Part shown: piece after piece, positions 36,019 to 59,846 of the stretch
Layout: each line of letters starts with the position of its first letter
Position numbering within the stretch: the stretch's first letter is position 1
Source: Betaproteobacteria bacterium
GTDB lineage: Bacteria > Pseudomonadota > Gammaproteobacteria > Burkholderiales > Burkholderiaceae_C
Length of the DNA stretch: 64,000 bases
Assembly: GCA_947453725.1 (NCBI GenBank)
Contig: CANGHH010000006.1
Span: forward strand, 124,001-188,000
Reading direction: 5' to 3'
Made by a program: the position numbers and the translations under genes
The notes under the pieces: generated by a model
The model's database searches: none
What the model saw: only the letters and a program-made list of their open reading frames with translations
Told to the model about the DNA's origin: nothing

Positions 36019-37668
36019 ATGCGCCGTCGAGTCCTGATCTCCTGGATAGCCGTCAACAACGATCCCTTCGAGAGAGACCGGGCAGGAAACACGTTCCGCC
36101 TCGTCGAGGGCTCACCGGTTCCCGGGCCGACCCTGACGTTGTTGTTCGATGCTGATTCGCCCTATGTCGGGAGCATCGCCGATCTCGTGCTGTTTCACAG
36201 TCAACCTCCTGATGGGCACGAGACCCGTCAGTCACGCGCCTTCCAGCAAACCGTAGAAGAACTGCGCCTTCGTGATCCCGGGCTGCGAATCCACTCGGAG
36301 CCTTGGGAGGGAGATGACCCTACCGATCACGTTCAGCTATTCGACTTCCTGAGGGAGAAGCTGCCGGCGATACGGAGAAAGTTTGCCGACAGGGAGCTGA
36401 TCCTGCATGTCAGCCCCGGCACGCCTTCCATGCAAACTGTGCTCGTGCTGATGGGCGAGACCGGTTTCATCGATCCACCCTTTGTGCTCGTCAAGTCGTA
36501 CCGGAAGGAGGAGCGCAACGGCCGTCCCGCAGTCGTGCCCGTCCAACTCGGTATCGACAGCTACTACAAGGCTTATCGCGCTGCCCGGCCCTCGGAGGTG
36601 TCGTCGGAAGACGCGGCGGTCGTCTGGGATCCCGCGCGGTTCAAGTCCAGTCGCATGCGTGAGATCTTCGATGAAGCTCGCCGATTTGCTCAGCTGAATG
36701 TGCCAGTGCTCCTTTTGGGCGAGCGCGGTACTGGCAAGACGACGCTGGCGGGCTGGATTCGTTCTCACAGTCCCTATCGAGTGCCGGATCGAGACGGGCA
36801 TTGGCCAGCGGTTGCGTGTGGTCAGTACAACCCCGAGACGATGCGTGCCGAGTTGTTCGGCTACAAGCGAGGATCCTTCACTGGTGCACTCAAGGACCAC
36901 GAAGGACTTCTCGCGGTGGCCCACAAGGACACGCTGTTCCTCGACGAGATTGGTGATGTCGGCAGAGACCTCCAGCGCCTGCTGATCAAGGCTGTCGAGG
37001 AAAAGCGCTACATGCGTCTTGGTGACGACCGACAGTTGACGAGCGACTTCAGGCTGATCTCGGCGACCAACCTTCCCGACGAAAAGCTCCGCGAGCGACT
37101 CGATCCGGACTTCTTCGACCGCATCAGCATGCTGACACTGCGGATGCCACCGTTGCGCGAGATTCCGGAAGAGATCTCATGGCTCTGGGAAATGGTGTTT
37201 GCGCAGGCGGCGCATCGGGCTGGCAGTGGCCGTGTGCGACTTCCAGCCAGCGCACACCGGGCGATCGTCGACCAACTGTCGAGACATCCGCTTCCCGGCA
37301 ACCTGCGGGACTTGTTCCGTGTGGCGTACCGAACCATCGCCGCCAGAGTCGATCAGCACTCACCGCTCTCAGCCGCGGACGCGTCGGAGTACGGACTTGC
37401 GGGTGTGGAAGGGTCTCCTTCCGAGATTGGCGCCGACGCGCTGCCCAAGGCCGTGGCACTTGCCTTCGCTGAATCGACAAGTCTGGAACCCCTCGTCGCA
37501 TCGGGCGAGTCGATCAATACGAAGGCGGTCGAGAGAGCTTTCAAGGCCTACCTGGCTGAAGAGATCCGCAGGATCGCCAAGAAGCGCGGGGTCTCCTCTG
37601 AATCCCTCTGCGATGTCACGGATCGTGCCTTGAGGGAGTGGGCAGCCACTCGGGATGGGAAAAAATGA
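36019..37668 (+). CDS. Sigma-54-dependent activator with RtcR/CARF-like N-terminal sensor
   Basis: A 549-residue enhancer-binding protein. The N-terminal ~190 residues are RtcR-like: a Rossmann-type start (RRVLISWIAVNN) and the CARF-type motif LHVSPGTPSMQTVLVLMGE (residues 129-147), the region which in CARF proteins binds nucleotide or RNA-end ligands. The AAA+ domain has Walker A GERGTGKT (234-241), the sigma-54-contacting GSFTGA (285-290), Walker B TLFLDE and an arginine region FFDRIS. The C-terminus (EEIRRIAKKRGVSSESLCDVT) is the expected place for a Fis-type HTH. It precedes a -24/-12 promoter and a large operon. No RNA ligase genes (rtcB, rtcA) are present, so the target differs from E. 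coli RtcR. Start ATG at 36019 has a weak RBS. Confidence 0.9.
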   Translation: MRRRVLISWIAVNNDPFERDRAGNTFRLVEGSPVPGPTLTLLFDADSPYVGSIADLVLFHSQPPDGHETRQSRAFQQTVEELRLRDPGLRIHSEPWEGDDPTDHVQLFDFLREKLPAIRRKFADRELILHVSPGTPSMQTVLVLMGETGFIDPPFVLVKSYRKEERNGRPAVVPVQLGIDSYYKAYRAARPSEVSSEDAAVVWDPARFKSSRMREIFDEARRFAQLNVPVLLLGERGTGKTTLAGWIRSHSPYRVPDRDGHWPAVACGQYNPETMRAELFGYKRGSFTGALKDHEGLLAVAHKDTLFLDEIGDVGRDLQRLLIKAVEEKRYMRLGDDRQLTSDFRLISATNLPDEKLRERLDPDFFDRISMLTLRMPPLREIPEEISWLWEMVFAQAAHRAGSGRVRLPASAHRAIVDQLSRHPLPGNLRDLFRVAYRTIAARVDQHSPLSAADASEYGLAGVEGSPSEIGADALPKAVALAFAESTSLEPLVASGESINTKAVERAFKAYLAEEIRRIAKKRGVSSESLCDVTDRALREWAATRDGKK

Positions 37669-37690
37669 TCCGACCGGCGGAAAGATTGTT

Positions 37691-37712
37691 CCTGAAATGG
37701 CCGTTGTTCAGG
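37691..37712 (+). promoter_or_regulatory. Candidate upstream activator (enhancer) site
   Basis: Inverted repeat CCTGAA (37691-37696) / TTCAGG (37707-37712) with 10 bases between, placed about 120-140 bases before the predicted transcription start, the usual distance for a sigma-54 enhancer. The adjacent direct repeat TTGTTC supports a dimer or hexamer landing site. Confidence 0.5.
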
Positions 37713-37750
37713 GGCGTCAGCAGGACTAAATCGTGTGTGGAGAGTGATGT

Positions 37751-37763
37751 TAAGTCATTGATT
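37751..37763 (-). promoter_or_regulatory. Predicted IHF binding site
   Basis: The sequence TAAGTCATTGATT fits the reverse complement of the IHF consensus (YAANNNNYTGATW) at every fixed position. It lies in an AT-rich patch midway between the enhancer candidate and the -24/-12 promoter, where IHF bends DNA to bring a sigma-54 activator to polymerase. Confidence 0.6.
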
Positions 37764-37805
37764 TACAAGGAGTTAGTCGCCTATTTGGGGCTGTCATGGC
37801 GAACG

Positions 37806-37822
37806 TTGGCACGCATATCGCA
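37806..37822 (+). promoter_or_regulatory. Sigma-54 (-24/-12) promoter of the TerY-like operon
   Basis: TTGGCACGCATATCGCA matches the RpoN consensus TTGGCACGNNNNTTGCA at all fixed bases but one, with GG and GC correctly spaced. Transcription should start near 37833, about 52 bases before the first gene of the operon. Confidence 0.8.
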
Positions 37823-37884
37823 CTACTGGTTGGTGTGGAGCACGGAATCCTTCCGAGCCCGATCAACCCAGGAGAACCAGCGAA

Positions 37885-38214
37885 ATGAACATGAATGTGA
37901 CCACGAACGGCTCCGTATTCGGCAGCGCACCGGCAGTTACCCAGCACGCCTGGGCCCGGATGTGCGGGCGCCGGTTGAACGGACAGACCATCGATGCGGT
38001 GCTGAGCTATGGGCGCGTGATCCACGTACGTGGGGCGGCGATCTACGTCATCGGTCGGAAGGAGGTGGAGAGGCTTGGGCGGTCAGGCGTGGATGTAGCG
38101 GAATACGAAGGTGTGCAAGTCGTCTGCACCCCGGACAGCTCTGCAATCTTGACCGTCTACAGGAACAGCGACTTTCGCGGGCTCAAGCCGCGCAGTGGAC
38201 GGCGTTGGCATTGA
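37885..38214 (+). CDS. Small DUF4258-like protein, first gene of the sigma-54 operon
   Basis: A 109-residue protein. The pattern TQHAWARMCGRRLNGQTIDAVLSYGRVIHVRG followed by YRNSDFRGLKPRSGRRWH resembles DUF4258-type small proteins, several of which belong to nuclease-toxin-like folds; this is a family-level impression, not proven here. A conserved-looking His near the N-terminus (QHAWARM) and the basic C-terminus are candidate functional residues. RBS GGAGAA precedes the ATG by 8 bases. It is the first gene after the sigma-54 promoter. Confidence 0.6.
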   Translation: MNMNVTTNGSVFGSAPAVTQHAWARMCGRRLNGQTIDAVLSYGRVIHVRGAAIYVIGRKEVERLGRSGVDVAEYEGVQVVCTPDSSAILTVYRNSDFRGLKPRSGRRWH

Positions 38215-38411
38215 TGGCCAGCACGTCACACACCTGGAACCTCAAGGGGTAGCGCATGGGATGGGCCAAGTATCTGGAAGACATCGCTAGTCGGCATAAC
38301 GGGACGTCTCTCGTGCAGAACCAGTTCCAGAAGGAGCTTGGGCGTGTGGCACGGCCCGGCAGCCCCAAGGCTCCGGGCAAGATCAAGTTGAAGAATCAAG
38401 GAGAACAACAC

Positions 38412-39074
38412 ATGTCAAAGCTCAAGGATTTCGTGGTCACGACGGCCCGTCCGTTGCCGGTCATCCTGCTGGCCGATGTCAGTGGAAGCATGGCCACGAA
38501 CGGCAAGATCGATGCACTCAACGACGCGATTCAATCGATGATCGAGAGCTTCGCGACTGAGGATCACAGCCGCGCCGAGATCCATGTTTCGGTGATCGCG
38601 TTTGGCAAAGGTGGCGCGCGGCTCCACCAACCCTTGTTGCCCGCTGCGCAGATCAAGTGGGAACGGGTCACCGCAGCGGGCAATACGCCAATGGGTGCTG
38701 CGTTCGACCTGGTCGTGAAGATGGTCGAGGACCACGACCAGATTCCGAGCCGAGCCTATCGGCCGACCGTCGTACTCGTATCCGATGGCCAGCCTACTGA
38801 CGAATGGCGGGAACCCCTGCAGCGCATGCTCGCATCGGACCGTGCCGCCAAGGCCTCCAGGTTCGTGCTGGGAATCGGAGATGACGCCGACCCAGCAATG
38901 CTGGCTGAGTTCTTGGCGGACCCATCGGCGCGCGTTTACTCGGCGCATGAGGCCCGCCAGATCAAGAACTTCTTCCGCTGGGTCACCATGAGCGTTACTC
39001 AGCGCACCCGCAGCGTGAACCCAAACAGCGTGGTGGTGGTCGATCCCATGGCTCTCGATGAATATGACTTCTAG
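38412..39074 (+). CDS. TerY-like von Willebrand factor A domain protein
   Basis: A 220-residue cytoplasmic vWA protein. The metal-ion-dependent adhesion site is complete: DVSGSM (22-27), the Thr in TAAGNTPMGAAF, and the Asp in VLVSDGQPTDEW. This layout and the size match TerY, the adaptor of the TerY-PP2C-kinase triad. The ATG at 38412 has a strong RBS (AAGGAG, 38397-38402). The frame is open upstream to an ATG at 38256 with its own AAGGGG, which would add 52 residues (MGWAKYLEDIASRHNG start); that longer form is possible. Overlaps the phosphatase by 17 bases. Confidence 0.88.
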   Translation: MSKLKDFVVTTARPLPVILLADVSGSMATNGKIDALNDAIQSMIESFATEDHSRAEIHVSVIAFGKGGARLHQPLLPAAQIKWERVTAAGNTPMGAAFDLVVKMVEDHDQIPSRAYRPTVVLVSDGQPTDEWREPLQRMLASDRAAKASRFVLGIGDDADPAMLAEFLADPSARVYSAHEARQIKNFFRWVTMSVTQRTRSVNPNSVVVVDPMALDEYDF

Positions 39075-39804
39075 AAATCGATTGGCACGCAGGAGCCGAG
39101 TCGATCACTTCGGAGCGAGTGTCGCCGGCCCGGCACACCGCGCATTGCGACGGCCAAACGAGGACCAGTGGTTCGGTGCTTCTGGCGCCTTCGGAAGTCT
39201 GGTCGTAGTGAGCGACGGACTGGGCTCGAAGAGCCAGGCCAGGCATGGCGCCAAGAAGGCCTGCATCGCCACGTTGCGGGCTGTCCGTGCCTGGCACAAG
39301 GCTGGGACGTGCTCAATCGATGACCTCGTCGGCAGGATCGAGCCGCTCTGGCTTGAAGAGATCGCGCCGTTCGACCGCGGTGACTGTGCCGCAACTTGTT
39401 TGCTTGCGCTGGCTCATGTCGGCGGGTGCGCCTATTTGGCTGCGCTTGGCGACGGCATGGTGGCGGTTCGAGTTCAGGGAGTCATCGAGCGGGTGGAGCA
39501 CCCTCGAGGATCCGGGTTCTCCAACGAGACTCAGTCCCTTGGCAGTGGTGGTGTCTGGGCAACGCGCTGCTTCGAATGCTCCGAGATTGACATCGCCGTT
39601 CTCGCATCTGACGGAGTCTCGGACGACCTGCGTTCCGATCGCCTTGCCGACTTCATCGCTTGGCTGAACGACGAATTCGCTCACCTTCAACCGGTCACAC
39701 GTTGGCGATCGCTGCGTCGTGAGTTGACCCATTGGCCGACACCTCGACACCTCGACGACAAGACGATTGCGGTGCTGGCTTGGCCGAGCAAGGAAGCTGC
39801 ATGA
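39058..39804 (+). CDS. PP2C-family Ser/Thr protein phosphatase
   Basis: A 248-residue PPM/PP2C phosphatase that should reverse phosphorylation by the kinase encoded next. Metal-binding motifs are present: RRPNEDQWF (32-39), VVSDGLGS (51-58), ALGDGMVAVRV, LASDGVSDDL, and DDKTIAVLAW at the end. Its ATG lies inside the vWA gene and its stop overlaps the kinase ATG (ATGA), so the three are translationally coupled. No membrane segment, so it is cytoplasmic. Confidence 0.9.
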   Translation: MNMTSRNRLARRSRVDHFGASVAGPAHRALRRPNEDQWFGASGAFGSLVVVSDGLGSKSQARHGAKKACIATLRAVRAWHKAGTCSIDDLVGRIEPLWLEEIAPFDRGDCAATCLLALAHVGGCAYLAALGDGMVAVRVQGVIERVEHPRGSGFSNETQSLGSGGVWATRCFECSEIDIAVLASDGVSDDLRSDRLADFIAWLNDEFAHLQPVTRWRSLRRELTHWPTPRHLDDKTIAVLAWPSKEAA

Positions 39805-41201
39805 AATCCGTCTCACGGCAAGTGACCGATCTGAATGGCGCGCGTCACGTCTTGACTCGGCAAATCGGGCGCGGCGGACAGGGCGCGGTCTTCGAGGTCA
39901 AGGGCGGCCGCCTGGCTGCCAAGATCGTCTTCGACTCCTCGGCTTCCCGCCGTGAAAAGCTCCGCAACCAGCTTACCCAGATCAAGAGGTTGCCTCTAGC
40001 CGACCTCGAGATTGCGCGTCCACTCGAGATGCTGCGTGAACCCGTTCTTGGCTACTTGATGGAACTGCTGACCGGCATGCAGCCGCTGAGCGCGCTTTGC
40101 CATCCACCCAAATCGGTCGCCTCAGTCAAGGCGTGGTATTTCGAAACCGGTGGTCTGCGCAGGCGTCTGGCGCTGTTGGCCCGCACGGCCGATGTGTTGT
40201 CCGCTCTTCATGGGAAGGGACTCGTCTACTCAGACCCCTCGCCGCACAACATCTTCGTGTCCGAGTCCAGCGATGCCATTGAAGTCAGGTTCATCGACAG
40301 CGACAACATCCACTACTCGTCGAGCGCGGGGGTTGCTACTGTTTTTACTCCTGGCTATGGAGCGCCCGAACTCATGCGATGCACATCGGGCGTGAACTCG
40401 CTCACCGATGCGCATGCCTTCGGTGTTCTGTGTTTCCAGACCTTGTCGCTCGTTCACCCGCTGATCGGCGACTCAGTTTCGAACGGCCCGCCAGAGAGAG
40501 AGGAACAAGCATTTGCGGGGGCTGTGCCGTGGGTCGATGATCCGACTGATCGTTCGAACAGTTGCTCGAGCGGCATACCCCGTAGCTTGACGCTGTCTTC
40601 GAGGTTGGCTGAGATCTCACAGAGAGCCTTCGGCATCGGCCTCAATCAGCCCTTGCAGCGCCCCGGAGTTTCGGAGTGGGCGGAGAGATTGCATGCGGCT
40701 GCAGACGCAACCGTACTGTGCCCAGAATGCCAGGGCACGTACTACATGAATGCCAAGCAATGTCCGTGGTGTGAAGCGCCTCGTTCCGGGTTCGCGATTG
40801 CAGAGTTCCACCTGTGGGATCCCTCGCTAGGCGAGGGTTCTGAGATCGTCTCGAAGCCTTCCGGGGATCGGCACAGGCCGGTCATTGCGGCCGCCTTGGC
40901 GATCACCGATGGGGAAACCAAGGTCATCACGCGGCGACACGTCAACGGGCACGCGGGACGGGAAGGGCAGCGGCCTGTCATTGCGCTGAAGCTCGAAGGA
41001 TCGCGGGTCACGGTTCAAGCCCTCGATGGAGCAACTTATCGACTTACATCGCCCACCGGTGCGCGGTCCGCTGAAGTCGGACCTAGACCCTCATCAATCC
41101 TGCTGAAGCAGGATGAAGCCTCTTGGCGTTTGCATCTCGGATCGATCGACACCCTCCACAGGGTCGTGTCCTTCACCGCGCGGAAAGCGGGTTCCAAATG
41201 A
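39801..41201 (+). CDS. Ser/Thr protein kinase with C-terminal zinc ribbon (TerY-P triad type)
   Basis: A 466-residue kinase. The Gly-rich loop IGRGGQGAVFEV (22-33), the Lys in AAKIV (Lys41), the catalytic loop VYSDPSPHN (142-150, with Asp145 and Asn150 in place of HRDLKPEN), the metal Asp in FIDSDN (166) and GYGAPELM (186-192) are visible. After the kinase domain comes a zinc ribbon (CPECQGTYYMNAKQCPWCE, near 310-330) and a beta-rich C-terminal domain reminiscent of an FHA/SHOCT-like recognition module. It is coupled by ATGA overlaps to both neighbours. Confidence 0.88.
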   Translation: MKSVSRQVTDLNGARHVLTRQIGRGGQGAVFEVKGGRLAAKIVFDSSASRREKLRNQLTQIKRLPLADLEIARPLEMLREPVLGYLMELLTGMQPLSALCHPPKSVASVKAWYFETGGLRRRLALLARTADVLSALHGKGLVYSDPSPHNIFVSESSDAIEVRFIDSDNIHYSSSAGVATVFTPGYGAPELMRCTSGVNSLTDAHAFGVLCFQTLSLVHPLIGDSVSNGPPEREEQAFAGAVPWVDDPTDRSNSCSSGIPRSLTLSSRLAEISQRAFGIGLNQPLQRPGVSEWAERLHAAADATVLCPECQGTYYMNAKQCPWCEAPRSGFAIAEFHLWDPSLGEGSEIVSKPSGDRHRPVIAAALAITDGETKVITRRHVNGHAGREGQRPVIALKLEGSRVTVQALDGATYRLTSPTGARSAEVGPRPSSILLKQDEASWRLHLGSIDTLHRVVSFTARKAGSK

Positions 41202-44200
41202 AGGCACATGAGGTTCCCTACGGAACGTGTTCGCTGGTTGAACTCGTCCCCTCCGATGCAGTGAGTTTCGACAGCTCTGTGGCCTTGAGACGGGAGATCG
41301 CGATTCTGTTCTCCGAGTCCACGGGTCAATCACTGCTGCGTGCCGGTCCGACGGCGGTCAGCGTCATCGGGCGAGACAAGCAAGCGCAAGCCATCCTCGC
41401 CCGACTGAGGGACCGCAATCTTCCACGACTCGGGTGGGTTACCGCAACGACGCCGAAAAGCGGTCCCATCGAGTGGATTCAAGTGCAAGTGCACGAGTTC
41501 CCCGTGCAGTACTCCTGGCCAGGTGACATCGACGTTGGGGTTGACGAAAAGGTTGTCGACGTCATCCGCCAGAAGCTCGGAAAGAGCATTTCCGCAACCG
41601 AAGTCATCGAATGGCTGACCGAGCGTTTCGTCCTGATCGACCAGGAGTCGGGGTCGAAGGTGTTCATCTCTGGAAGTCCAACGCCGGAGAGCGATCACCG
41701 GCGCCCGTTTCGCATGCATGGGAAGGGCTATGCGATAGACGTTCAGAAGACGCCAGAAGACAAGTTGCTTCTGACTCGGCTGGTCGAGGCAAGACGCGGT
41801 GCCTCTGCAGAGGAAAGACGCCCGATCGTCCCCGTCCAAGGGAACGTCCGCTTTTGCGACTCGACCATTGCAGGCGCGTTCAGGGGTGCAGCTAGGTCTC
41901 AGTTGGATCAACTGGTCGAGCAAGCAGGCAGCTATCTGAACGTCTGGCGGGAGTACAACAAGCTTGAACGAGACAGTGTCTTTCGCCGAGCAAGGACACT
42001 GGGTTGGCTCAGCTATTCGGAGGCCAAACGGCAGGCAGATGGCCGATGGCGGTTTCGGATTCAAGATTCGAAACAACTCGACACCGCGTTGAATCTGCTG
42101 CGAGGTGCAGAGGATGTGGAGTTGGAGGCCGCATCACAGCCTCCGCGAGAGTTGCAGGAGAGCTCGGACTCGTCGAGCAGTGGCCTGGCAACCGAGGGCG
42201 GCGCCACCAGGAGTCCGAGGGCATTTGTCGGGTCTTTCGTCGGGGGCGACTCTGGGCGATACCTCGACGTTCTACCCACGGGAGACCTGGACGATCGCGA
42301 GCCCCCGATCCCTGGCGTGCTGTTCATGAGCATGAGTGGGGACAGAAGGCGCTTGGAACGCAGGGAACGGGCCCAAGCCAGCATCGCTTTGGCCGAGTGC
42401 CCTATGCCTCAGCTGGGTCTACTGCTCGAGGGTAGCGCTGTGCCGGAGCGACGGAGGAAGACCGAGACCGCGCTGTCGGCCGTCGTCCGAGAAGTGTTCG
42501 GGGGCGATCCGACACCGAGGCAGATCGAGGCGATTCGGGTTGCTCTGAACACGCCGGATATCGCCCTGATTCAAGGGCCTCCGGGGACCGGGAAGACGAA
42601 GACCATCGCCGCGCTCCAGGCGCGATTGGCTGAACTGGGCGAAGACGGGGACCTTGCTGGCCAGACGCTCCTCACGAGCTATCAGCATGATGCAGTCGAG
42701 AACGCAGCGGCAAGAACGCTGGTCTTCGGTCTGCCTGCGATAAAGGTCGGCAGAAAGCACGGGCGCACCGACGACGGCGACGGGTTCGACCGTTGGCGGC
42801 GCGAGCGCGTCGACGGCATTCGGGCGGACCTGGCGCGATTGCCGGAAAGACCGGTCAGCGAGGTACTGCGGAAGGTCCGGTCCATGTCCGCGGCCTACCA
42901 CGCATCCCGATTCAGCCCAACCGAGACTACGAAGATGGTCCGCGATATCGAGGACATCGCGCGGCCATACCTGTCACCGTCATTGTTGGATCGTCTTCTG
43001 GCTATCCGGCAGGAACTCTCTGGAAAGCAAGATGGAGGTCCGACCTTTCAGTCCGACGATCGCGACTTGCTGCTCAAAGCCATTCGGGGATTGCGTGTCG
43101 ATGCGATCAGCTTTGGCGATGACGGTCCGAGGAACGCTACGAGAGTCCTGCATAGGCTCGAGTTGCTCGGCGCGTGCGATGGCGACGCGCTACGGCTACT
43201 CACCGTTGCCTCCGATTGGGATGCGGACGGTGAGCCTGCATTCCTGCCTGAACTCAAGGCACTGCAGGAAGCACTCTTGGATCGATTCTCTGAACAGGTC
43301 GCCGTTGGTGGGCCGAGTCGCCACGGCGACCTGGAGGAGATCCTGCCCGAGATCGTCAATGAACTCTTTTCGCGGGCACGGGAGTCGTCGGGCGGTGAGG
43401 ACGCCGTCCTCTATGAGTATCTATTCGACCTTGAAAACGACGTCGATGCGGTGCGGTCTGCGGTGCGTGACTACACCGTCGTGCTGGCGGCCACGTGCCA
43501 GCAGGCAGTCGGATTTCAGATGAGCGCGCTGAAGGGTGAGCGAAGCGTCTTCGCCAACGTCATCGTCGACGAGGCGGCGCGTGCCAATCCTCTCGATCTG
43601 TTCATTCCCATGGCACTGGCTGAACGTCGCATCATCTTGGTCGGCGACCATCGACAGCTGCCACACATCCTCGAACCAGATGTCGAAGGACAACTGGAAT
43701 TGTCGGTATCTGAAGAGACTCGCTTGGCATTGCGCCGAAGTCTCTTTCAGCGCCTGTTTGAGTCGATGCGCCAGCGAGAAGCGATCGACGGCATCAAGAG
43801 GACAGTCACGCTTGACGTGCAATACCGGATGCACCCGGTGCTTGGGGGTTTCGTCAGCGATACCTTCTATGCGCCCTATGGGGAGGCCTTCAGGTCCGAG
43901 ACGCCTGCCGATCAATTCGAGCATGCCCTGCCAGGCTACCAACCTCACGTAGCGGCTTGGGTCGACGTCCCTCTGTCGGCAGGGAAGGAGCAGGGCGGGC
44001 AGAGCAAGCGCAGGCCCGCGGAGGGACGCTGGATCGCCAAAGAGCTCAAGTCGCTGGCGACTGTGCGACCGGATCTCAGCTTCGGGGTCATCTCCTTCTA
44101 CGCGGGTCAAGTCGATGGAATCCTTGCGGAGTTGGAACCGCTCGGCATAGCCGAACAGTTGCCAGACGGATCGTTCCGCGTCGCCGATGCTTGGCGTGAG

Positions 44201-44527
44201 ACAAGAGGAATGGATGGCCACCTCAAGGAGCGCATTCGGGTCGGTACGGTGGATGCCTTCCAGGGCAAGGAGTTCGATGTCGTGTTTCTGTCCATGACGC
44301 GGTCGAATGACCTTCCGATCACGGACAACCGATCGTTGAGGCGAAAGTTTGGTCACCTCATGCTCGAGAACCGGCTGTGTGTCGCGATGAGTCGCCAACA
44401 GCGGCTGCTGATCGTGGTGGGAGATTCAGGGATGCTCCGCGGTGAAGTTGCGGAACAAAGCCTCGCTGGATTGGTGGCCTTCCGCAAACTCTGTGAGGGA
44501 CGGCATGGCTGCATTGTTTCAGCTTGA
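41198..44527 (+). CDS. Large superfamily-1 (Upf1/Dna2-like) helicase
   Basis: A 1109-residue helicase. The N-terminal ~430 residues are unassigned and begin after the kinase stop (ATGA overlap at 41198). Motor motifs: Walker A QGPPGTGKTKTIAAL (about 459-473), Walker B VIVDEAARANPLDL (about 789), motif III LVGDHRQLPHILEP, motif IV VQYRMHPVLGGFV, motif V TVDAFQGKEFDVVFLSMTRS, motif VI VAMSRQQRLLIVVG. This is the Upf1/Dna2 branch, which moves 5' to 3' on DNA or RNA. A ~300-residue insertion lies between motifs I and II. Confidence 0.92.
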   Translation: MKAHEVPYGTCSLVELVPSDAVSFDSSVALRREIAILFSESTGQSLLRAGPTAVSVIGRDKQAQAILARLRDRNLPRLGWVTATTPKSGPIEWIQVQVHEFPVQYSWPGDIDVGVDEKVVDVIRQKLGKSISATEVIEWLTERFVLIDQESGSKVFISGSPTPESDHRRPFRMHGKGYAIDVQKTPEDKLLLTRLVEARRGASAEERRPIVPVQGNVRFCDSTIAGAFRGAARSQLDQLVEQAGSYLNVWREYNKLERDSVFRRARTLGWLSYSEAKRQADGRWRFRIQDSKQLDTALNLLRGAEDVELEAASQPPRELQESSDSSSSGLATEGGATRSPRAFVGSFVGGDSGRYLDVLPTGDLDDREPPIPGVLFMSMSGDRRRLERRERAQASIALAECPMPQLGLLLEGSAVPERRRKTETALSAVVREVFGGDPTPRQIEAIRVALNTPDIALIQGPPGTGKTKTIAALQARLAELGEDGDLAGQTLLTSYQHDAVENAAARTLVFGLPAIKVGRKHGRTDDGDGFDRWRRERVDGIRADLARLPERPVSEVLRKVRSMSAAYHASRFSPTETTKMVRDIEDIARPYLSPSLLDRLLAIRQELSGKQDGGPTFQSDDRDLLLKAIRGLRVDAISFGDDGPRNATRVLHRLELLGACDGDALRLLTVASDWDADGEPAFLPELKALQEALLDRFSEQVAVGGPSRHGDLEEILPEIVNELFSRARESSGGEDAVLYEYLFDLENDVDAVRSAVRDYTVVLAATCQQAVGFQMSALKGERSVFANVIVDEAARANPLDLFIPMALAERRIILVGDHRQLPHILEPDVEGQLELSVSEETRLALRRSLFQRLFESMRQREAIDGIKRTVTLDVQYRMHPVLGGFVSDTFYAPYGEAFRSETPADQFEHALPGYQPHVAAWVDVPLSAGKEQGGQSKRRPAEGRWIAKELKSLATVRPDLSFGVISFYAGQVDGILAELEPLGIAEQLPDGSFRVADAWRETRGMDGHLKERIRVGTVDAFQGKEFDVVFLSMTRSNDLPITDNRSLRRKFGHLMLENRLCVAMSRQQRLLIVVGDSGMLRGEVAEQSLAGLVAFRKLCEGRHGCIVSA

Positions 44528-46085
44528 TTCGCCGGTCCTGCACTTCGGCCCCCGCATGCCAGCGGGAGTCAGGTACAGCCAACGCAAGTTCCTTTTGTGG
44601 CCTGCGTTGATGTACCGGGTCGTCGCGCCAGAGGTCAGGCCTCGCCAGATCAACATACTTCAGAAGGCTGTGCTCGGCATGTGCCGCGCCGGTGTGACTT
44701 CCCCTGTGCGTGTAGGCGAAAAGCTGAGGATCCACCCAGATTTGGCCGAGCTGATCATGAAGGAGCTGCTGCAGCGGGCGCTCATCAAGCCTGACGGACT
44801 GCCGACAGCCGCCGGTAACGAGGTTTTCGAGGACGAGGCTCTCGACATGAGGCCCCCGGTGACAGGCCACGTCTTCCAGGACCCGTGGTCCGGTGAACTA
44901 TGGCCACGATTCGTCCAGCGCTTGGACTATGTGGAACTGGACCGTCGAGACAACGGGTTCCCCGATTTGATCTTGGGGACCAAGGGCAAGCCGCGGCGGG
45001 AGCGCGCTTTCATGTGCCGCCCGGTCGACGATGCAGTGCCTCCATCTCCGGACGTGCGGCAGATCCTGCGCGCCACCCATCGACACAAGTCTGCCTTGCG
45101 CAACTCGGAGTCATTTGAGGTGCCGGAAGACGATGAGCAGATGTCGCTCGACGTTGGCACGGCCCTACAGAGAATCTCGCTGGTCGACGACGCACCAACT
45201 CCAGTCTTTCTCACCACGTTCATCTATCTGGCAGAGAACGAGAACACCGGCGAGTGGCACGCATGCGATCCCTTCGGATTGGGAGAGAGCCCGGTACTCA
45301 GACGTGCCATAGATCGTGAGGTCGCGTTCTTTCCGAGGCTCCGAGAGGCCGTCGAGGCTCTCATCGGCTCATCGCTTGATGCGCAGGTCGAGAAGCAGCG
45401 CGGGTGGATTGCCGAGTTGAGGGAACTTGCCACTTCGAATCTCGAGCGCAAGCTCACGGTCAATGCGCGAGACCTGCCGGCTTTCGACGAACTCCTTCAA
45501 CTCGAGATGGCCTATCTGGATGCCGAACTTCTGGGGGATGCCTGTCCTGAGCAGCGCCTACGCGATTTGCTGGGTGCGGCGAGACGGGCGCTGGAATCGA
45601 CCTTTAGGTCGATTGCATCGAAGTTTCCTCCGGGGGATGTCTGGCGTCACGTCTACTTCAAGGACAAGGCCGGGAAGGATCGCCCCGTTCAAGACCAAGT
45701 CTACGTATCGGACGTCTACAAGGTTTGCGCCACCAATCTCGGTTTCGCTACTCCCCTTCCGGAGGCCGTCCAACGTACGCGACCGAACCATTTGCGGGCT
45801 GCATGTTTCGAGTCTGGCTGGAGGCTTCGCGGCGCGATCGTCGCTTCGATGATGGCCGCAGTCAACAACCCATTGCACCCGCTGGTTCTTGCCGCAAAGC
45901 GACGTCCTGAACTGATCGAGGACTTGGATGCGGTGGCCTCGATGGCCGGTGAGGCTATCCATGCGGGAGACAGCATCGTAGAGCTTGGAGCCATCACTCC
46001 AGTGATCGATTCGGTCTACCGGTCCATTGCAATCCTTGGCGGCATCGAGGTTGGCGAGATAAATCAAGTTGAGAAGGGTCGATAG
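44505..46085 (+). CDS. Unknown component of the sigma-54 operon, possible winged-helix N-terminus
   Basis: A 526-residue protein overlapping the helicase end by 23 bases. Residues ~45-110 (RQINILQKAVLGMCRAGVTSPVRVGEKLRIHPDLAELIMKELLQRALI then AAGNEVFED) read as a winged-helix domain. The middle has VTGHVFQDPWSGELWPRF; the C-terminal half is helical and contains YLDAELLGDACPEQRLRDLLGAARRALESTF. No nuclease motif stands out. Its position between helicase and McrB-like genes suggests a bridging or DNA-recognition subunit. The ATG at 44505 is preferred; an in-frame ATG at 44442 lies inside the helicase. Confidence 0.75.
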   Translation: MAALFQLDSPVLHFGPRMPAGVRYSQRKFLLWPALMYRVVAPEVRPRQINILQKAVLGMCRAGVTSPVRVGEKLRIHPDLAELIMKELLQRALIKPDGLPTAAGNEVFEDEALDMRPPVTGHVFQDPWSGELWPRFVQRLDYVELDRRDNGFPDLILGTKGKPRRERAFMCRPVDDAVPPSPDVRQILRATHRHKSALRNSESFEVPEDDEQMSLDVGTALQRISLVDDAPTPVFLTTFIYLAENENTGEWHACDPFGLGESPVLRRAIDREVAFFPRLREAVEALIGSSLDAQVEKQRGWIAELRELATSNLERKLTVNARDLPAFDELLQLEMAYLDAELLGDACPEQRLRDLLGAARRALESTFRSIASKFPPGDVWRHVYFKDKAGKDRPVQDQVYVSDVYKVCATNLGFATPLPEAVQRTRPNHLRAACFESGWRLRGAIVASMMAAVNNPLHPLVLAAKRRPELIEDLDAVASMAGEAIHAGDSIVELGAITPVIDSVYRSIAILGGIEVGEINQVEKGR

Positions 46086-48545
46086 ATGTCAAAGAACAAG
46101 AACAAGCACAGGCAGCAGCCAGCGCCGGTCAAGAAGCCTGACCTGCCGCCTACCTCCGGAGTGACACCTCCGGCGCCGGTAGGCATTGCGCCGTCATTGA
46201 ATCCTGGCGAGTTAGTGACGCCTGTCCAAGCTGCCCAGGCCATCACCAGCATTCACTCACAAGTGCTCGAGGCAGCGACTGAGTCGGACATCGAGGTTGC
46301 GATGATCGCGACGCCGTCCAATGGCGACGCCATAGATCTCGAGAAGGCGGTGCGCGAGCTGAGCGAAGCGTTTGCGATGTGCAAAGCGCGATCAGAGCGC
46401 ATGGTGCGACTCGAAGCCGGGGAGGCCAGCCTTCAGGAGTCGCAGGCGACGCTCCTTCAGCAGCAGAGTCGACTTGCTGCGGATCAGAGAGATATCGATG
46501 AACGTGAGGCGGGCCTAAAGAAGCGCGAGGAAGAGTTCCGCTCTCTAGAGGACAGCCTTCGTGGTCGCGAATTGAATGCAGAGGCCGGGTTTGTCGCTGA
46601 GCGACGTGCCTCGCTGCAGCTGCTTGACCAGGAAGCCGCTGCTGTCCGCGAGGAACTCTCACGCGCACGTGGATTGATGGCGACCGAACGTGCTGAATGG
46701 GACTCGCGCTGGCACGAGCAGGACATCAAGGTCCGCGCAGATCTCGAAGCCCTCAGGGCCGAGCAGAACGCTGCGCACCTCAAGGTCACAGCGGAGCTGG
46801 ATGAGCAACGGCGGCAGTTCGAGATCGAAAGCTCGCGAGCCCGCACTGATGTCAAGAAGCAGCAGGCGAAGTTGGATGTACTGGCAGAAGTGATGGCCGA
46901 AGATCGCGCAGCCTTCGACCTGCGGGTGCAACAGCGAGCCGGCGCACTGTTGGAAGACGCTGGCGCCAAGTACCGTGACTTGGAAGCTCGGCTCGATGCC
47001 GCACGGACCGAGCGCGACGCACTCTACGAGAGGCTGCGCGAACGCGAGGAGGCAGAACGTGCACTGGGCAACAGACCTCTCAGCGAAGTCAAGCAGGAGT
47101 TGGACAACCTGATCAAGGAGAGGAAGTCTCTGGCCGATCGTCTGGCCAAGCGTCCGAGCGAGGACATGGTCGCGCGCCTGGAAACGCTGGAGCGTGCCCA
47201 GGAAGAGTGGGAAGCCGATCGTGCGCGTCTGTCCCAGGAGCTGATTTCCAGTCGTGCCGCGGTAGCCAGGTCCTCGATTGCCGTCACCGAGATGGAGTCG
47301 CTACGAGATCAGAAGGCTGCACTGGAGACTGGCAGGGACTTGCTTCAGGCCGCGCTGGAGGAACTGAGGAAGGATGTGGATGATCGAATCCGGCGCTCCG
47401 ATGGCGTGAGCCCCTTCCCATCGTGCAGCGAGATGGACAGGGACGAGGCGCTTCAGGTCAGCCCGCCGATGTACGACGAAATTCCCGACCTCAGTGCCTT
47501 CTGCGAGGACCTCCAGCAGCGGATCGCCATCGATCCAGCGTCCAGCAAGGTTCTGCACTACTCCCTTTCCGATATCCGCTGTTTCCTGGCCGGCATGGCG
47601 ATGAGCAGACTGCATCTGCTGCAGGGCATCAGCGGCACAGGGAAGACGAGCCTGCCGCTTGCCATGGCCCGTGCGCTTGGCGCCGGGTCGACGCTGGTCG
47701 AGGTGCAGGCAGGGTGGAGAGACCGTCAAGATCTAATTGGCCACTTCAACGCTTTCGAGCGTCGCTTCTACGAGTCGGAGTTCCTGCAGGCGCTCTACCG
47801 GGCACAGTGTCCCCGCTACGCGAACGGCGTGTACATCGTCGTCCTGGACGAGATGAACCTCTCCCATCCCGAGCAGTACTTCGCCGACCTGTTGTCGGCA
47901 CTCGAACAGGACCCCCAGCACCAGAAGCTGGATCTGATGACTGCATCCGTTGAGCCGGCTCCTGCCTTGCTTCAGAACGGTCGGACGCTTCCGCTGCCTG
48001 GCAATGTCTGGTTCGTAGGGACGGCGAATCATGACGAAACGACGAAGGACTTTGCGGACAAGACCTACGACCGTGCGCATGTGATGGAACTTCCCCGTCA
48101 TCGGGAGTTCTTCAAGCCCAAGCGGTCGAAGGCACGACCGCCCGTTTCTCTGGCTGCATTGCAGGGGGCATTCTCTGCAGCTCAGAACGTTTTTCAGAAG
48201 CAGGCCACGGATGCCTATCAGTTCGTGGACGGATCCTTCGCCGACATATTGGGACGCCGATTCCGGGTCGGCTGGGGCAATCGTCTGGAGCGACAGATGC
48301 TTGACTTCGTTCCGGTGGTATTGGCGGGCGGTGGCACATTGACCGAGGCGGTGGACCACGTCCTGGCGACCAAACTCCTACGCAAGATTCGGGATCGGCA
48401 TGACACCAGGCCGGAAGACCTGGAAGCGCTTCGGATTGCTGTTGAGGAGGCATGGCCCCGTCTCCGCTCTCAGGGCGAGCCTGTGAAGTCGAAGGAAATC
48501 ATCCGCAGCGAACTCCGGCGACTGGGTGCCGACGAGGCCGCATGA
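46086..48545 (+). CDS. Coiled-coil McrB-like AAA+ NTPase
   Basis: An 819-residue protein. Residues ~90-440 are a long coiled coil rich in Glu, Arg, Ala and Leu (for example LAADQRDIDEREAGLKKREEEFRSLE). The C-terminal McrB-type AAA+ motor has Walker A LLQGISGTGKTSLP (Walker A at about 514), a Walker B VYIVVLDEMNLSHPEQYFADLL, and the sensor-I region VGTANHDETTKDFADKTYDRAHVMEL. In McrBC the McrB motor hydrolyses GTP; whether this one uses GTP or ATP cannot be told. The coiled coil replaces the usual DNA-binding N-domain. It overlaps the next gene by 4 bases. Confidence 0.88.
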   Translation: MSKNKNKHRQQPAPVKKPDLPPTSGVTPPAPVGIAPSLNPGELVTPVQAAQAITSIHSQVLEAATESDIEVAMIATPSNGDAIDLEKAVRELSEAFAMCKARSERMVRLEAGEASLQESQATLLQQQSRLAADQRDIDEREAGLKKREEEFRSLEDSLRGRELNAEAGFVAERRASLQLLDQEAAAVREELSRARGLMATERAEWDSRWHEQDIKVRADLEALRAEQNAAHLKVTAELDEQRRQFEIESSRARTDVKKQQAKLDVLAEVMAEDRAAFDLRVQQRAGALLEDAGAKYRDLEARLDAARTERDALYERLREREEAERALGNRPLSEVKQELDNLIKERKSLADRLAKRPSEDMVARLETLERAQEEWEADRARLSQELISSRAAVARSSIAVTEMESLRDQKAALETGRDLLQAALEELRKDVDDRIRRSDGVSPFPSCSEMDRDEALQVSPPMYDEIPDLSAFCEDLQQRIAIDPASSKVLHYSLSDIRCFLAGMAMSRLHLLQGISGTGKTSLPLAMARALGAGSTLVEVQAGWRDRQDLIGHFNAFERRFYESEFLQALYRAQCPRYANGVYIVVLDEMNLSHPEQYFADLLSALEQDPQHQKLDLMTASVEPAPALLQNGRTLPLPGNVWFVGTANHDETTKDFADKTYDRAHVMELPRHREFFKPKRSKARPPVSLAALQGAFSAAQNVFQKQATDAYQFVDGSFADILGRRFRVGWGNRLERQMLDFVPVVLAGGGTLTEAVDHVLATKLLRKIRDRHDTRPEDLEALRIAVEEAWPRLRSQGEPVKSKEIIRSELRRLGADEAA

Positions 48546-50773
48546 CATATCGCTTCGTCGATCGATTGAGCGGTAAGGCCTGCGAAGTGCAGGCAGGGAG
48601 CACTCTGCTCGGCCGCTTCATGGTGGAGCACTCCGGCGATGATTCGACGTTCCTGAATTCCGTCGCGATCGCGGAATCAACCTACTGCGTTCCCGATTTG
48701 CGGGGGCAGTGGCAACTCCTGCAACCAGGGCAGGAGCGAATCGAAGGAACGATCTCGCGAACGCAGGTTCTGGATCGACTCGACATTTCGAGCATCTTGG
48801 ACGTTGGAAAGAGCGTCGAGGAAGTCATCTCATCGGGAGGCACCTGGCTGGATACGCTCAGTGTGTCTCCATTGGTCCCGGGCATGTCCGAGCGAGCGGA
48901 ACTGCAGGACTTCGAGAAGTTCCTTGCCGAGCATCTTGGGCATCTGATCGAGGTCTGTAAGCGGCCCCGGACCCATCTTAGGGTGGAAGTCGAGCGGACG
49001 GCGGTCTCTCGGGCGAGGCGAGTAGCGACGCAGGCATCCAGCTATCTGGCCGCCCATACCGAGGACTGGGATCGACCGACGCTGCGAGCGGTCATACCTA
49101 AGCGCATCCTCTCGCTTGTACGGGAGGACCAGTACGACATCTACGAGAACAGGGTAGCGGCGCGCTTGGTCGACCATGTGGATGCTTACCTTTCACGCCG
49201 TGTGACCGAAGTTTCCAGGCTGCTTCGCTTGTTCAGCGCGGCTGGGGATCACCGTTCCACCGCAGGGCAGGGTTCGCACTGGCGACAAAGGCGCGTCTAC
49301 CAGCTCTGGGGCTCATCGATCGATGCCGGTGACGCTCGGCGCAAAGCTGAGCGCACCCTTGAGCAAATTAAGTATTTGAAGTACTCGATATCGGGTCTGA
49401 TGGACTCGCTGCTGTATCGCGAGGTTCCGAGAAGGGCGTTCGTGAGCACGACCCTCACGATGACGAACATCCTTGCGAATGACGCGCACTATCGCCGGGT
49501 GGCGGACATCTGGCTCGCATGGGCGCGACTAGGGCTGGAGCAGTCGCCGAAGCCGGAGAAGCACTTCGAGGAGATGCAGTCGCTGTGCCGATGCTTTGGC
49601 TCGTTCGCATTGTTGCTCGTCATCAGGGGGCTGGAGCAACTGGGTATCGAACCTGTAGACCTGTCGCAGTCTCTCGCTGGGCAAGAAATTGAGCTGGCAG
49701 GGCAGGGCGCACGTGCGCGGCTGTCCTGGTCGGCCAGCGACGGTGTACTGCGTCTTGCAGTTGAGCATGGCAGGCCATTGCGAATCGTCCCGATTCCAGC
49801 GTCCGTCGCGATGCTCCCGGATGATGGTCTCGCCAGACTGATGCGCAATGCCGACGAGGCGGGAAGTTCGGGTGAGATCACCCTGGTGGTTTATCCAAGC
49901 CCATCGACTGAAGTTGCTTTTCAGCGCATGGAGCCAGCCCATGCTCATCGACTGCACGCCCTGTCGCATGAGATCGCAGAACAGGGTCAAACGAGGGCTG
50001 GGTTTTTGCCCGTTTCCCCTTGGGATTTGATCAGCGTTGAACGAGTTGCGCGTCAGCTCCGATGGGCGATCTCGGCGCCGGCGTTCCTTGCATATCCGCC
50101 GTCTTTCGCCAATCCCCTTGTGGCGGAACTCGCCGCCAACGCACTCTGGCTCAAGGTGTCTGGTTCGGACGTAGTAGTTGTTCGAGCCCCTGGGCCGCAT
50201 GAAACGCTGCCAGTTGCACAGCTGCTAGTAGCTGAGAAGAGCCGGCTTGTCGCGTTGGAGGCCGAGCATGTAGACGTGTCCCAGCAACTGCGCATGGCGG
50301 TGAGAGATGGACGAGCTAGCGGGCTCCTTAACGGGCGAAAGAAGGGACTCAATGCCCAGATCACCGATCTTCAATCGCGCATCGGCTTCTTGACCTCGCT
50401 TGAGGTTGACTTGGAGGCTGGAGTGGCGGTCGTCCAGTCTCTTCTCACTTGTCCAACTTGTGCGACGGTTGCCGACCCTAGGCGTGATTTCAAGGGCGGA
50501 CCCGACCATCGCTTTTCCTGTGAGTGTCCTGATTGTTCTACGCAGTGGGGAGCAGAGGCCTGTCCGAACTGCAGGGCATGGATCCCCACGCTGCTGCCGG
50601 AAGTGACGTCGTGGACGGTAGGCGAGGCTGCTGAGGTGGGTTGGCTGGATCAGTTCCTGGGGGCGGATGTGCTAGCCGTGCCGTACAAGTTGGAGCGCGG
50701 TGCGGTAGGCTATGTGTGCCCGTTCTGCGGACACGGGCGGGCGGTTGAAGGGCTCAACAGAGCTGTGTCCTAG
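48542..50773 (+). CDS. McrC/DUF2357-like protein with C-terminal zinc ribbons
   Basis: A 743-residue protein, partner of the McrB-like motor by position. The stretch LVREDQYDIYENRVAARLVDHVDAYLSRRV is the YENR region found in McrC/DUF2357 proteins. No DAKY-type PD-(D/E)XK nuclease motif is visible in the following 450 residues. The C-terminus instead holds two zinc-ribbon clusters: CPTCATV with CECPDC and CPNC, and CPFCGH near the end. A nuclease-dead or rearranged McrC that recognises nucleic acid is therefore possible. Start ATG overlaps the upstream stop (ATGA). It is the last gene of the operon. Confidence 0.78.
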   Translation: MTYRFVDRLSGKACEVQAGSTLLGRFMVEHSGDDSTFLNSVAIAESTYCVPDLRGQWQLLQPGQERIEGTISRTQVLDRLDISSILDVGKSVEEVISSGGTWLDTLSVSPLVPGMSERAELQDFEKFLAEHLGHLIEVCKRPRTHLRVEVERTAVSRARRVATQASSYLAAHTEDWDRPTLRAVIPKRILSLVREDQYDIYENRVAARLVDHVDAYLSRRVTEVSRLLRLFSAAGDHRSTAGQGSHWRQRRVYQLWGSSIDAGDARRKAERTLEQIKYLKYSISGLMDSLLYREVPRRAFVSTTLTMTNILANDAHYRRVADIWLAWARLGLEQSPKPEKHFEEMQSLCRCFGSFALLLVIRGLEQLGIEPVDLSQSLAGQEIELAGQGARARLSWSASDGVLRLAVEHGRPLRIVPIPASVAMLPDDGLARLMRNADEAGSSGEITLVVYPSPSTEVAFQRMEPAHAHRLHALSHEIAEQGQTRAGFLPVSPWDLISVERVARQLRWAISAPAFLAYPPSFANPLVAELAANALWLKVSGSDVVVVRAPGPHETLPVAQLLVAEKSRLVALEAEHVDVSQQLRMAVRDGRASGLLNGRKKGLNAQITDLQSRIGFLTSLEVDLEAGVAVVQSLLTCPTCATVADPRRDFKGGPDHRFSCECPDCSTQWGAEACPNCRAWIPTLLPEVTSWTVGEAAEVGWLDQFLGADVLAVPYKLERGAVGYVCPFCGHGRAVEGLNRAVS

Positions 50774-51087
50774 TGTGGACGAGTGAGAGCGACATGCCGC
50801 TAGGTCAATGGGTCGGTCTGCCGGGTGAGGCTGTGGAATACCTTGCTTCGAGTGCAGCTAACGCCGGAGCCTGTCTCTCGCCGATCCTCGATCTAGATTC
50901 CGCTGGAGCCGGCTTTGATGTAGTTCAGGCACTCGTTGATGGCGCCAGCCAAGTCCAAGTGAACGGCGAGTGCGCGTGACGCCGAGTTGACGAAGATTTT
51001 GGAGAACTGCGGGACCGGGCTTGAGCAACAGCGCGATCGGGTTCACGACGGGCAAGCTCGACTTCGCGCGGCAGGCTTTGGCTTTGG
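50774..51087. other. 314-base gap between convergent operons, with possible gene remnant
   Basis: The plus-strand sigma-54 operon and the minus-strand MetK operon converge here. No complete gene is seen. On the minus strand a short frame ending at 50893 encodes a protein-like tail (FVNSASRALAVHLDLAGAINECLNYIKAG) but is closed upstream by a stop near 51040, so it may be the remnant of a decayed gene. No clear hairpin terminator was found. Confidence 0.4.
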
Positions 51088-52778: not shown

Positions 52779-52813
52779 CGCGATCTCCTCAACATTGGAT
52801 TGATTTCGTCGGG

Positions 52814-59828: not shown

Positions 59829-59846
59829 ATAAGTGCAACTAACAGA

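What the first reader, a model, noticed from the sequence alone, without database searches (positions are those of the whole stretch)
36019..50773. Sigma-54-controlled TerY-PP2C-kinase / SF1 helicase / McrB-McrC-like island
Nine genes (one regulator and an eight-gene operon with overlapping starts and stops) combine a CARF/RtcR-like sensor, a vWA-phosphatase-kinase triad, a large Upf1/Dna2-type helicase, a coiled-coil McrB-like AAA+ motor and a zinc-ribbon McrC/DUF2357-like protein. The triad resembles the TerY-P triad described with the tellurite-resistance stress systems, and the McrB/C-like pair resembles modification-dependent restriction. The combination under a sigma-54 switch reads as a ligand-sensed, phosphorylation-gated nucleic-acid defence or repair system on a conjugative element. 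I do not know of a description of this exact set.
Basis: partly seen in the sequence, partly recalled or inferred. Interest (0 to 1): 0.93.

Follow-up and report, generated by a model that had tools for sequence, protein, structure and literature searches.

The report
CARF-switched Type II CoCoNuT defence operon
This is a complete copy of an already described bacterial anti-virus gene set (a Type II CoCoNuT), kept under its own stress-activated switch, and it belongs to a branch whose presumed RNA-cutting part has lost half of its cutting site.

Summary
Nine intact same-strand genes at 36019-50773 encode a CARF-AAA+-HTH sigma-54 activator, then an operon: DUF4258 protein, vWA, PP2C, kinase with zinc ribbon, UPF1-like helicase, winged-helix/HEPN-like protein, coiled-coil McrB-like ATPase and DUF2357/zinc-ribbon McrC-like protein. 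The set is not new: it matches the Type II CoCoNuT system of Bell et al. 2024 (PMC11090510), including TerY-P, an RtcR-like regulator and a small RelE/BrnT-like gene. A Type II CoCoNut was among systems that gave phage resistance in PAO1 (PMC12735699).

What I add: (1) a switch directly after the regulator: a sigma-54 box (22 of 27 RtcR-bearing loci) behind tandem CGGAA-N6-TTCCG dyads (10 to 12 of 26); (2) the window sits in a 16-row group in which every HEPN site lacks the arginine of RxxxxH but keeps the histidine, so no recognised nuclease motif is intact; (3) the host genome has RpoN but neither RtcA nor RtcB, which E. coli RtcR needs. Ordinary in kind, unusual in effector and signal. The carrier looks like a conjugative element, but its ends were not found.

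The parts
36019..37668 (+). RtcR-like CARF-AAA+-HTH enhancer-binding protein (549 aa)
   Evidence: PADLOC RtcR_PspF1 2.5e-152; Pfam Sigma54_activat 1.4e-38 and weak Csm6 CARF 2.2e-4, under its cut-off; NCBIfam RtcR equivalog 194 bits against a 650-bit cut-off, so RtcR-like, not RtcR
37657..37672 (+). putative upstream activating dyad 1, GGGAA-N6-ATCCG
   Evidence: tandem dyad pair 17/20, spacing 21, 0 of 500 simulated sequences as good
37678..37693 (+). putative upstream activating dyad 2, CGGAA-N6-TTCCT
   Evidence: 9/10 match, p 0.018; only exact match to CGGAANNNNNNTTCCKRA in the 4.4 Mb genome
37751..37763 (-). IHF-like site AATCAATGACTTA (recalled consensus WATCAANNNNTTR)
   Evidence: 0 mismatches; about 1% of simulated sequences have one; of the 21 other loci looked at, 2 have an exact site and 6 one with 1 mismatch
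37806..37822 (+). sigma-54 promoter box TTGGCACGCATATCGCA
   Evidence: only match with at most 1 mismatch in the window, though 1.4 are expected by chance in 64 kb; such a box follows the regulator in 22 of 27 loci
37885..38214 (+). DUF4258 protein (by position the BrnT-like gene of the CoCoNuT paper)
   Evidence: PF14076 in 24 of 24 homologues scanned, best 4.2e-9; window copy 0.0013, under Pfam's cut-off
38256..39074 (+). TerY-like vWA protein with a DxSxS motif
   Evidence: VWA 9.7e-12; PADLOC TerY 1.4e-4
39058..39804 (+). PP2C phosphatase
   Evidence: PP2C_2 1.2e-27
39801..41201 (+). Ser/Thr kinase with C-terminal zinc ribbon (CPEC...CPWC)
   Evidence: Pkinase 5.9e-10; sequence
41198..44527 (+). 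CnuH: UPF1-like SF1 helicase with N-terminal OB-fold-like domain
   Evidence: AAA_11/AAA_12; model of residues 1-488 matches UPF1 (1.3e-4), then HIRAN domains and, weaker, SmpB
44505..46085 (+). CnuE: winged helix, helical linker, C-terminal HEPN-like domain without the catalytic Arg
   Evidence: wHTH family in 32 of 51 and HEPN family in 3 of 51 homologues, neither in the window copy; model pLDDT 88.7, MarR-type winged-helix matches and a non-significant Csm6 match; motif
46086..48545 (+). CnuB: coiled-coil McrB-like AAA+ with NxD motif (GTANHDET)
   Evidence: AAA_5 1.4e-6; NxD in 86 of 86 readable loci; heptad periodicity at residues 95-430, 2 of 100 shuffles as high, ATPase part as control 12 of 100
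48542..50773 (+). CnuC: McrC-like protein, DUF2357, zinc ribbons, no recognisable nuclease motif
   Evidence: DUF2357 4.6e-4; conserved CxxC pairs and no conserved (D/E)xK pair

Best explanation
It is a complete Type II CoCoNuT anti-phage system with a dedicated CARF/sigma-54 switch. Shown by sequence: the gene set, its order, its recurrence and a recurrent sigma-54 promoter box behind the regulator. [quoted passage not shown] the activator oligomerises on tandem dyads near 37657-37693 and opens the promoter at 37806 with RpoN, perhaps helped by DNA bending. The operon then supplies TerY-P (signalling), CnuH (UPF1-like motor on RNA), CnuE (effector) and CnuB/CnuC (coiled-coil NTPase motor and its partner), which attack or silence RNA and stop phage growth, perhaps at the cost of the cell. 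In this branch the CnuE HEPN site lacks its arginine, so cutting is either done with a replacement residue (Arg461 is a candidate) or passed to another part (the DUF4258 protein or the RelE-like part of CnuH). Residue numbers of CnuE count from the GTG at 44442.
For: Gene set and order: 55 of 67 loci have all seven core genes, 66 of 67 in order. NxD motif 86 of 86 readable. Zinc-ribbon kinase, UPF1-like CnuH, winged-helix and some HEPN hits in CnuE homologues. RtcR-like gene upstream of vWA on the same strand in 26 of 67. Sigma-54 box in 22 of 27 RtcR-bearing loci; dyads; RpoN present. Published match: PMC11090510. A Type II CoCoNut was among the systems that gave resistance in PAO1: PMC12735699 section 3.4. 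[quoted passage not shown]
Against: No experiment on this locus. HEPN fold match to Csm6 is weak (E 0.25, probability 0.47), no HEPN family hit for the window copy, and its catalytic Arg is missing. The ligand is borrowed from RtcR, which in E. coli also needs RtcAB (PMC9650030); this genome has neither. Five of 27 RtcR-bearing loci show no promoter box. A dyad pair is significant in only 12 of 26 loci, and 2 of these 12 lie downstream of the promoter box. The heptad signal in the window's CnuB is modest (2 of 100 shuffles as high; ATPase control 12 of 100). I did not compare with the CoCoNuT authors' own reference sequences.
Confidence: 0.85

Rival explanations
1. Same system, but the HEPN domain is a dead RNA-binding module in this clade and the killing step is done by the co-induced DUF4258 (RelE/BrnT-like) protein at the head of the operon.
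For: Arg absent in all 16 rows of the window's group, while in the 15 distinct ones His507, His479 and Glu385 are invariant. Among RtcR-bearing loci with vWA, 17 of 17 Arg-less have DUF4258 against 11 of 19 with Arg. DUF4258 has invariant His19, Arg23, Arg27, Thr88 and Arg91 in the 24 homologues aligned.
Against: The association rests on at most 3 independent pairs, so it may be common descent. L010, L047 and L088 lack Arg and have no DUF4258. Three invariant residues in CnuE speak for a kept active site.
Confidence: 0.3
2. A stress or RNA-repair module rather than phage defence: broken tRNA induces helicase, kinase and phosphatase to tune translation.
For: RtcR-like regulator, TerY-P link to stress systems, UPF1-like helicase.
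Against: No RtcA/RtcB in the genome; conjugation genes nearby; DNA similarity to its two nearest relatives ends at the operon's 3' end; a related locus lies beside an annotated Zorya gene; a Type II CoCoNut was among systems giving phage resistance.
Confidence: 0.08
3. Canonical McrBC-type, modification-dependent DNA restriction with accessory genes.
For: AAA_5 and DUF2357 pairing.
Against: NxD instead of NxxD, coiled coil instead of a reader domain, no conserved (D/E)xK pair in CnuC.
Confidence: 0.04

Closest known systems
Type II CoCoNuT with RtcR-like regulator (Bell et al. 2024, PMC11090510)
   Same: TerY-P, CnuH, CnuE, CnuB (NxD, coiled coil), CnuC (DUF2357, zinc ribbon, no active nuclease), RtcR-like CARF gene at the 5' end, BrnT-like gene next to it
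   Different: CnuE HEPN lacks the Arg of RxxxxH (paper: conserved 'in most cases'); no RtcAB in this genome; the term search of that paper's main text found no promoter or activating-site analysis
TerY-P triad (Anantharaman 2012 and Gao 2020, as cited in PMC11090510)
   Same: vWA, PP2C and kinase in that order
   Different: kinase carries a zinc ribbon, as in other CoCoNuTs, not the OB-fold of the stand-alone defence version; part of a larger operon
RtcR of the RNA repair operon
   Same: CARF-AAA+-HTH, sigma-54 activator
   Different: under the RtcR equivalog cut-off; sits before another operon; no RtcAB in the genome
Mokosh (MkoA)
   Same: UPF1-like helicase similarity (PADLOC MkoA 3.1e-84) and a kinase in the system
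   Different: separate kinase, no PLD hit, McrBC-like pair present (Mokosh layout recalled)
E. coli McrBC
   Same: AAA_5 motor with DUF2357 partner
   Different: NxD motif, coiled coil, no nuclease motif seen

Membership tests
CoCoNuT (all types) | McrB-like GTPase with NxD in place of NxxD | tested here: met
   GTANHDET in window; NxD in 86 of 86 readable of 87 loci; GTP use not tested
[quoted passage not shown]
   heptad periodicity of residues 95-430 above 98 of 100 shuffles, ATPase control above 88 of 100; 0 of 30 shuffles as high in 4 of 5 relatives, 2 of 30 in the fifth; an earlier cruder score did not exceed its shuffles. Consistent, not proven
CoCoNuT Type II | UPF1-like CnuH with N-terminal OB-fold (SPB) and RTL domains | tested here: inconclusive
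   UPF1 core and an N-terminal OB-fold-like match found; HIRAN ranks above SmpB; RTL only a weak toxin-antitoxin match (6af4_C, E 0.27)
CoCoNuT Type II | CnuE with wHTH and one HEPN domain | tested here: inconclusive
   wHTH in 32 of 51 and HEPN in 3 of 51 homologues; fold match to Csm6 weak; His kept, Arg lost in the window
CoCoNuT Type II | CnuC with DUF2357 and zinc ribbon, inactive PD-(D/E)xK, no Hsp70 fusion | tested here: met
   DUF2357 weak, no Hsp70 hit, zinc-ribbon Cys, no conserved (D/E)xK pair; the inactivated fold itself was not modelled
CoCoNuT Type II | place in the GTPase phylogeny of Bell et al. | not tested
   the authors' reference sequences were not fetched; my tree holds only loci found by similarity to window proteins
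TerY-P triad | TerY-like vWA, PP2C, kinase with C-terminal zinc ribbon or OB-fold | tested here: met
   CPEC/CPWC in the kinase
RtcR equivalog (NF038308) | score over 650 bits, with rtcBA | tested here: not met
   194 bits; no RtcB or RtcA in the genome
McrBC, canonical | NxxD GTPase and active McrC nuclease | tested here: not met
   NxD; no conserved (D/E)xK pair
Mokosh | MkoA helicase with a PLD nuclease (layout recalled) | tested here: not met
   helicase hit only; no PLD hit among the nine ORFs scanned (one of the nine was the wrong frame, its right frame scanned)

The most novel reading that the evidence does not exclude
A sub-branch of Type II CoCoNuTs spread over several phyla (an Accumulibacter relative, Myxococcota, Deferrisomatales, gammaproteobacteria, Deinococcus) has turned its HEPN RNase into a histidine-only pseudo-nuclease, and here it is switched on by a CARF activator that works without RtcAB. 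Effector duty has moved either to a re-built site (Arg461 in place of Arg502) or to a small RelE-fold RNase placed first under the sigma-54 promoter.
Probability: 0.35. Interest if true: 0.62.

Novelty: new variant of a known kind. Interest (0 to 1): 0.42.

Why it matters
CoCoNuTs are predicted, hardly tested RNA-targeting immune systems. The recurrent promoter box, the activator dyads and a dyad pattern found once in the genome give a direct reporter test of what a CARF/RtcR-like sensor sees during infection. The Arg-less branch is a natural experiment on whether the HEPN domain is really the effector.

Tried and rejected
ORF 37638-38252 as the first operon gene: wrong frame, rejected on the sequence. 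The RTRPNH string in CnuE as the HEPN motif: its His is not conserved. Close homologues of CnuC in viral contigs: 2 stretches matched a pattern, none confirmed by tblastn. A whole-genome pattern for a strict sigma-54 box missed the window box, because its -12 element reads TCGC. IHF site: exact in the window, L015 and L016 only, 0 or 1 mismatch in 9 of 22 loci, so not claimed as general. Activating dyads: the pairs in L036 and L044 lie downstream of the promoter box and are probably chance; L043 has a pair but no box; L014, L022, L024, L029, L042, L066, L078, L079, L089 and L091 have a box but no pair at p under 0.05, and L015 is borderline at 0.036. A link between Arg loss and DUF4258: suggestive but not independent of descent. 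A second copy of the tRNA-His 3' end as the other end of the element: none in the genome with up to 2 mismatches. Sequence-only PDB search for DUF4258 (none) and CnuC (nothing convincing). Heptad test of the CnuE linker: not above shuffles; a first, cruder heptad score for CnuB did not exceed its shuffles. An active nuclease in CnuC of the Arg-less group: the only conserved acidic residues after position 350 are E532, E586, D735 and D741 and the only conserved Lys is K632, so no (D/E)xK pair (numbered from 48446, 15 loci, conservation of 85% or more).

Rows dropped before counts: CnuE hits of 80 bits or less were left out of the motif table (73 of 87 loci kept); L019 (same as L018) was left out; loci with under 9 kb upstream of CnuB were left out of the order count (67 of 87 kept); 51 of 64 selected CnuE and 45 of 65 selected CnuH homologues went into the structure alignments; 24 of 31 DUF4258 sequences went into; the 80 genome loci are the best by similarity to the window's CnuB out of 536 candidates, so counts are not a census.
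Full report
What is there. Nine same-strand genes fill 36019-50773. A 549-aa CARF-AAA+-HTH activator is followed, after 216 bp that hold the promoter, by eight tightly packed genes: DUF4258 (37885-38214), vWA, PP2C, kinase with zinc ribbon, UPF1-like helicase, a protein with no family hit of its own, a coiled-coil AAA+ ATPase and a DUF2357/zinc-ribbon protein. With my choice of starts, three junctions overlap by 4 bp (39801, 41198, 48542).

It recurs. A tblastn search of plasmids with the last gene found six records. Five of them (Deinococcus, Pseudanabaena, Nostoc, Rhodoferax, Polaromonas) show the core order, the Nostoc one without a phosphatase; the sixth (Annamia) keeps only a fragment of CnuB beside CnuC. 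A scan of genome contigs with the CnuB alignment gave 536 candidate relatives, of which the best 80 were kept. With profiles made from the window and plasmid proteins, 87 loci have CnuB (80 genome loci, 6 plasmids, the window); of the 67 with at least 9 kb upstream, 55 have vWA-PP2C-STK-CnuH-CnuE-CnuB-CnuC, 10 lack only a PP2C hit, 2 lack more, and 66 keep the order. An RtcR-like gene precedes vWA on the same strand in 26 of 67, and DUF4258 occurs in 28 of 67. A same-genus genome (L098) has all nine in order. DNA similarity to the nearest relatives L016 and L017 stops at 50730 and 50736, the end of the operon, although those loci run several kb further; their other side begins inside the regulator, so the 5' border could not be judged. 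In 148 related genomes 5 matched CnuC at E 0.001 or less, the window's own included and one weakly (2.1e-4).

What it is. The set is the Type II CoCoNuT of Bell et al. 2024 (PMC11090510; I read the abstract, sections 7, 8 and 9, part 1 of section 11, and passages). Here: NxD GTPase motif (86 of 86 readable loci); a heptad signal before the ATPase that is modest in the window and clearer in 4 of 5 relatives; UPF1-like CnuH (model of residues 1-488, pLDDT 82.5, UPF1 best match E 1.3e-4, then HIRAN, SmpB weaker); CnuE with winged helix and C-terminal helical domain (model pLDDT 88.7; wHTH family in 32 of 51 homologues, HEPN family in 3 of 51, neither in the window copy; Csm6 first by E-value but not significant); CnuC with DUF2357 and zinc ribbons and no Hsp70 hit; TerY-P with zinc-ribbon kinase; RtcR-like CARF gene; and a small upstream gene. 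[quoted passage not shown] here the small gene is DUF4258 (24 of 24 homologues scanned), a name the paper's main text does not use. Equating the two rests on position and on a RelE-like relationship that is recalled. A Type II CoCoNut cloned in PAO1 was among the systems that, JukAB excepted, gave resistance to at least one phage (PMC12735699, section 3.4 read).

The switch. In 27 loci with an RtcR-like gene before vWA (two of them, L018 and L019, the same) I looked from 30 bp before to 300 bp after the regulator's end for a sigma-54 box by a recalled consensus. In 22 of 27 the best site beat at least 98% of 300 simulated sequences; 11 of 27 fit YTGGCACG-N4-TCGCW exactly. The combined p of 1.9e-26 overstates the case, because the loci are related. 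L018, L019, L043, L080 and L081 show none. The window box is 37806-37822; alone it could be chance in 64 kb (1.4 matches expected at up to 1 mismatch). Upstream lie two dyads of the form CGGAA-N6-TTCCG 21 bp apart (37657 and 37678). Such pairs reach p 0.006 or less in 12 of 26 loci, 2 of them misplaced, and spacings of 21 and 22 score highest of all spacings from 12 to 40. An 18-base form of the second dyad occurs once in the 4.4 Mb genome. An exact IHF-like site lies between dyads and box in the window. The genome has RpoN.

The signal. [quoted passage not shown] E. coli RtcR also needs RtcA and RtcB, which bind its CARF domain (PMC9650030, abstract and discussion). This genome, 99.6% complete, has neither RtcB nor RtcA (the same searches rang in 9 and 5 of 14 control genomes, E. 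coli in both). So this activator either needs no partner or uses another one. The ligand is an inference.

The effector problem. CnuE residues are numbered from the GTG at 44442. In 73 loci with a scored CnuE, His507 is present in all; 44 have RxxxxH, 8 have the Arg one residue further off, and 21, the window included, have no Arg there. On a quick CnuB tree the window lies in a group of 16 rows (SH-aLRT 90), all Arg-less; the state needs 3 changes on the whole tree. In its 15 distinct members Asn503 has become Gly (93%), while His507, His479 and Glu385 are invariant; position 461 is Arg in 87% against Ser in 88% of the Arg-bearing group. The same-genus copy L098 is Arg-less too. The pattern is kept across several phyla, so it is not fresh decay. 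CnuC keeps no conserved (D/E)xK pair in this group; its fold was not modelled. No recognised nuclease motif is therefore intact in this branch. The paper says RxxxxH is conserved 'in most cases' and does not describe such a clade in the sections I read. Candidates for the missing activity are a re-sited arginine, DUF4258, or the RelE-like part of CnuH. All 17 Arg-less RtcR-bearing loci with vWA have DUF4258 against 11 of 19 with Arg, but at most 3 independent pairs exist.

Setting. An integrase gene (9408-10826) beside tRNA-His (9178-9253), and TraG, TraN, TraV, TrbI-like and DsbC-like genes, point to an F-type conjugative element upstream. No second copy of the tRNA end was found, so its limits are open.

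Literature: six full-text searches in an open-licence library only. None of the listings or passages I saw described promoter sites for RtcR-linked CoCoNuTs or an Arg-less HEPN clade; absence there is weak evidence. Passages of PMC12458937 extend the CoCoNuT name to Druantia I and II as Type IV and do not bear on this locus.

Verdict. A new, complete member of a described system, in a variant branch. The kind is known; the switch anatomy and the effector puzzle are the parts worth keeping.

Noticed in passing
window 51021-56563: Downstream block, mostly on the other strand: MoxR-like AAA (54962-56563, AAA_5 2.9e-10, bpMoxR 9.8e-6 under its cut-off), a DUF2201 putative metallopeptidase (52814-54781, 5.9e-5) and a large plus-strand ORF without hits; possibly a second MoxR-type module. 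No PADLOC hit for these three.
   Followed up: partly
window 56747-57733: HNH endonuclease with a PADLOC HNH match (2.2e-10), near a calcineurin-like phosphoesterase (58845-60104) and a 5'-3' exonuclease (61034-62023).
   Followed up: no
window 9178-28355: Integrase beside tRNA-His and F-type conjugation genes (TraG, TraN, TraV, TrbI-like, DsbC-like); other end of the element not located.
   Followed up: partly
L007 (unnamed same-genus genome G030, contig C53): CnuC relative with one in-frame TGA in the match, perhaps a decayed copy near a contig end.
   Followed up: no
L015 18095-28614: Polaromonas plasmid copy lies near an annotated Zorya gene (zorA) and an SNF2-related gene, so probably a defence island.
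   Followed up: no
L018/L019 119-2199: DUF4258 lies upstream of the RtcR-like gene rather than after it, and no sigma-54 box was found after the regulator: a different promoter layout.
   Followed up: no
window 46086-48545: CnuB matches the PADLOC candidate PDC-M26A (2.5e-35), so that candidate family may be CoCoNuT-related.
   Followed up: no
window 38256-38412: The vWA frame has an N-terminal extension (MGWAKYLEDI...) whose like occurs in L015 and in the L014 sequence before the annotated start.
   Followed up: no
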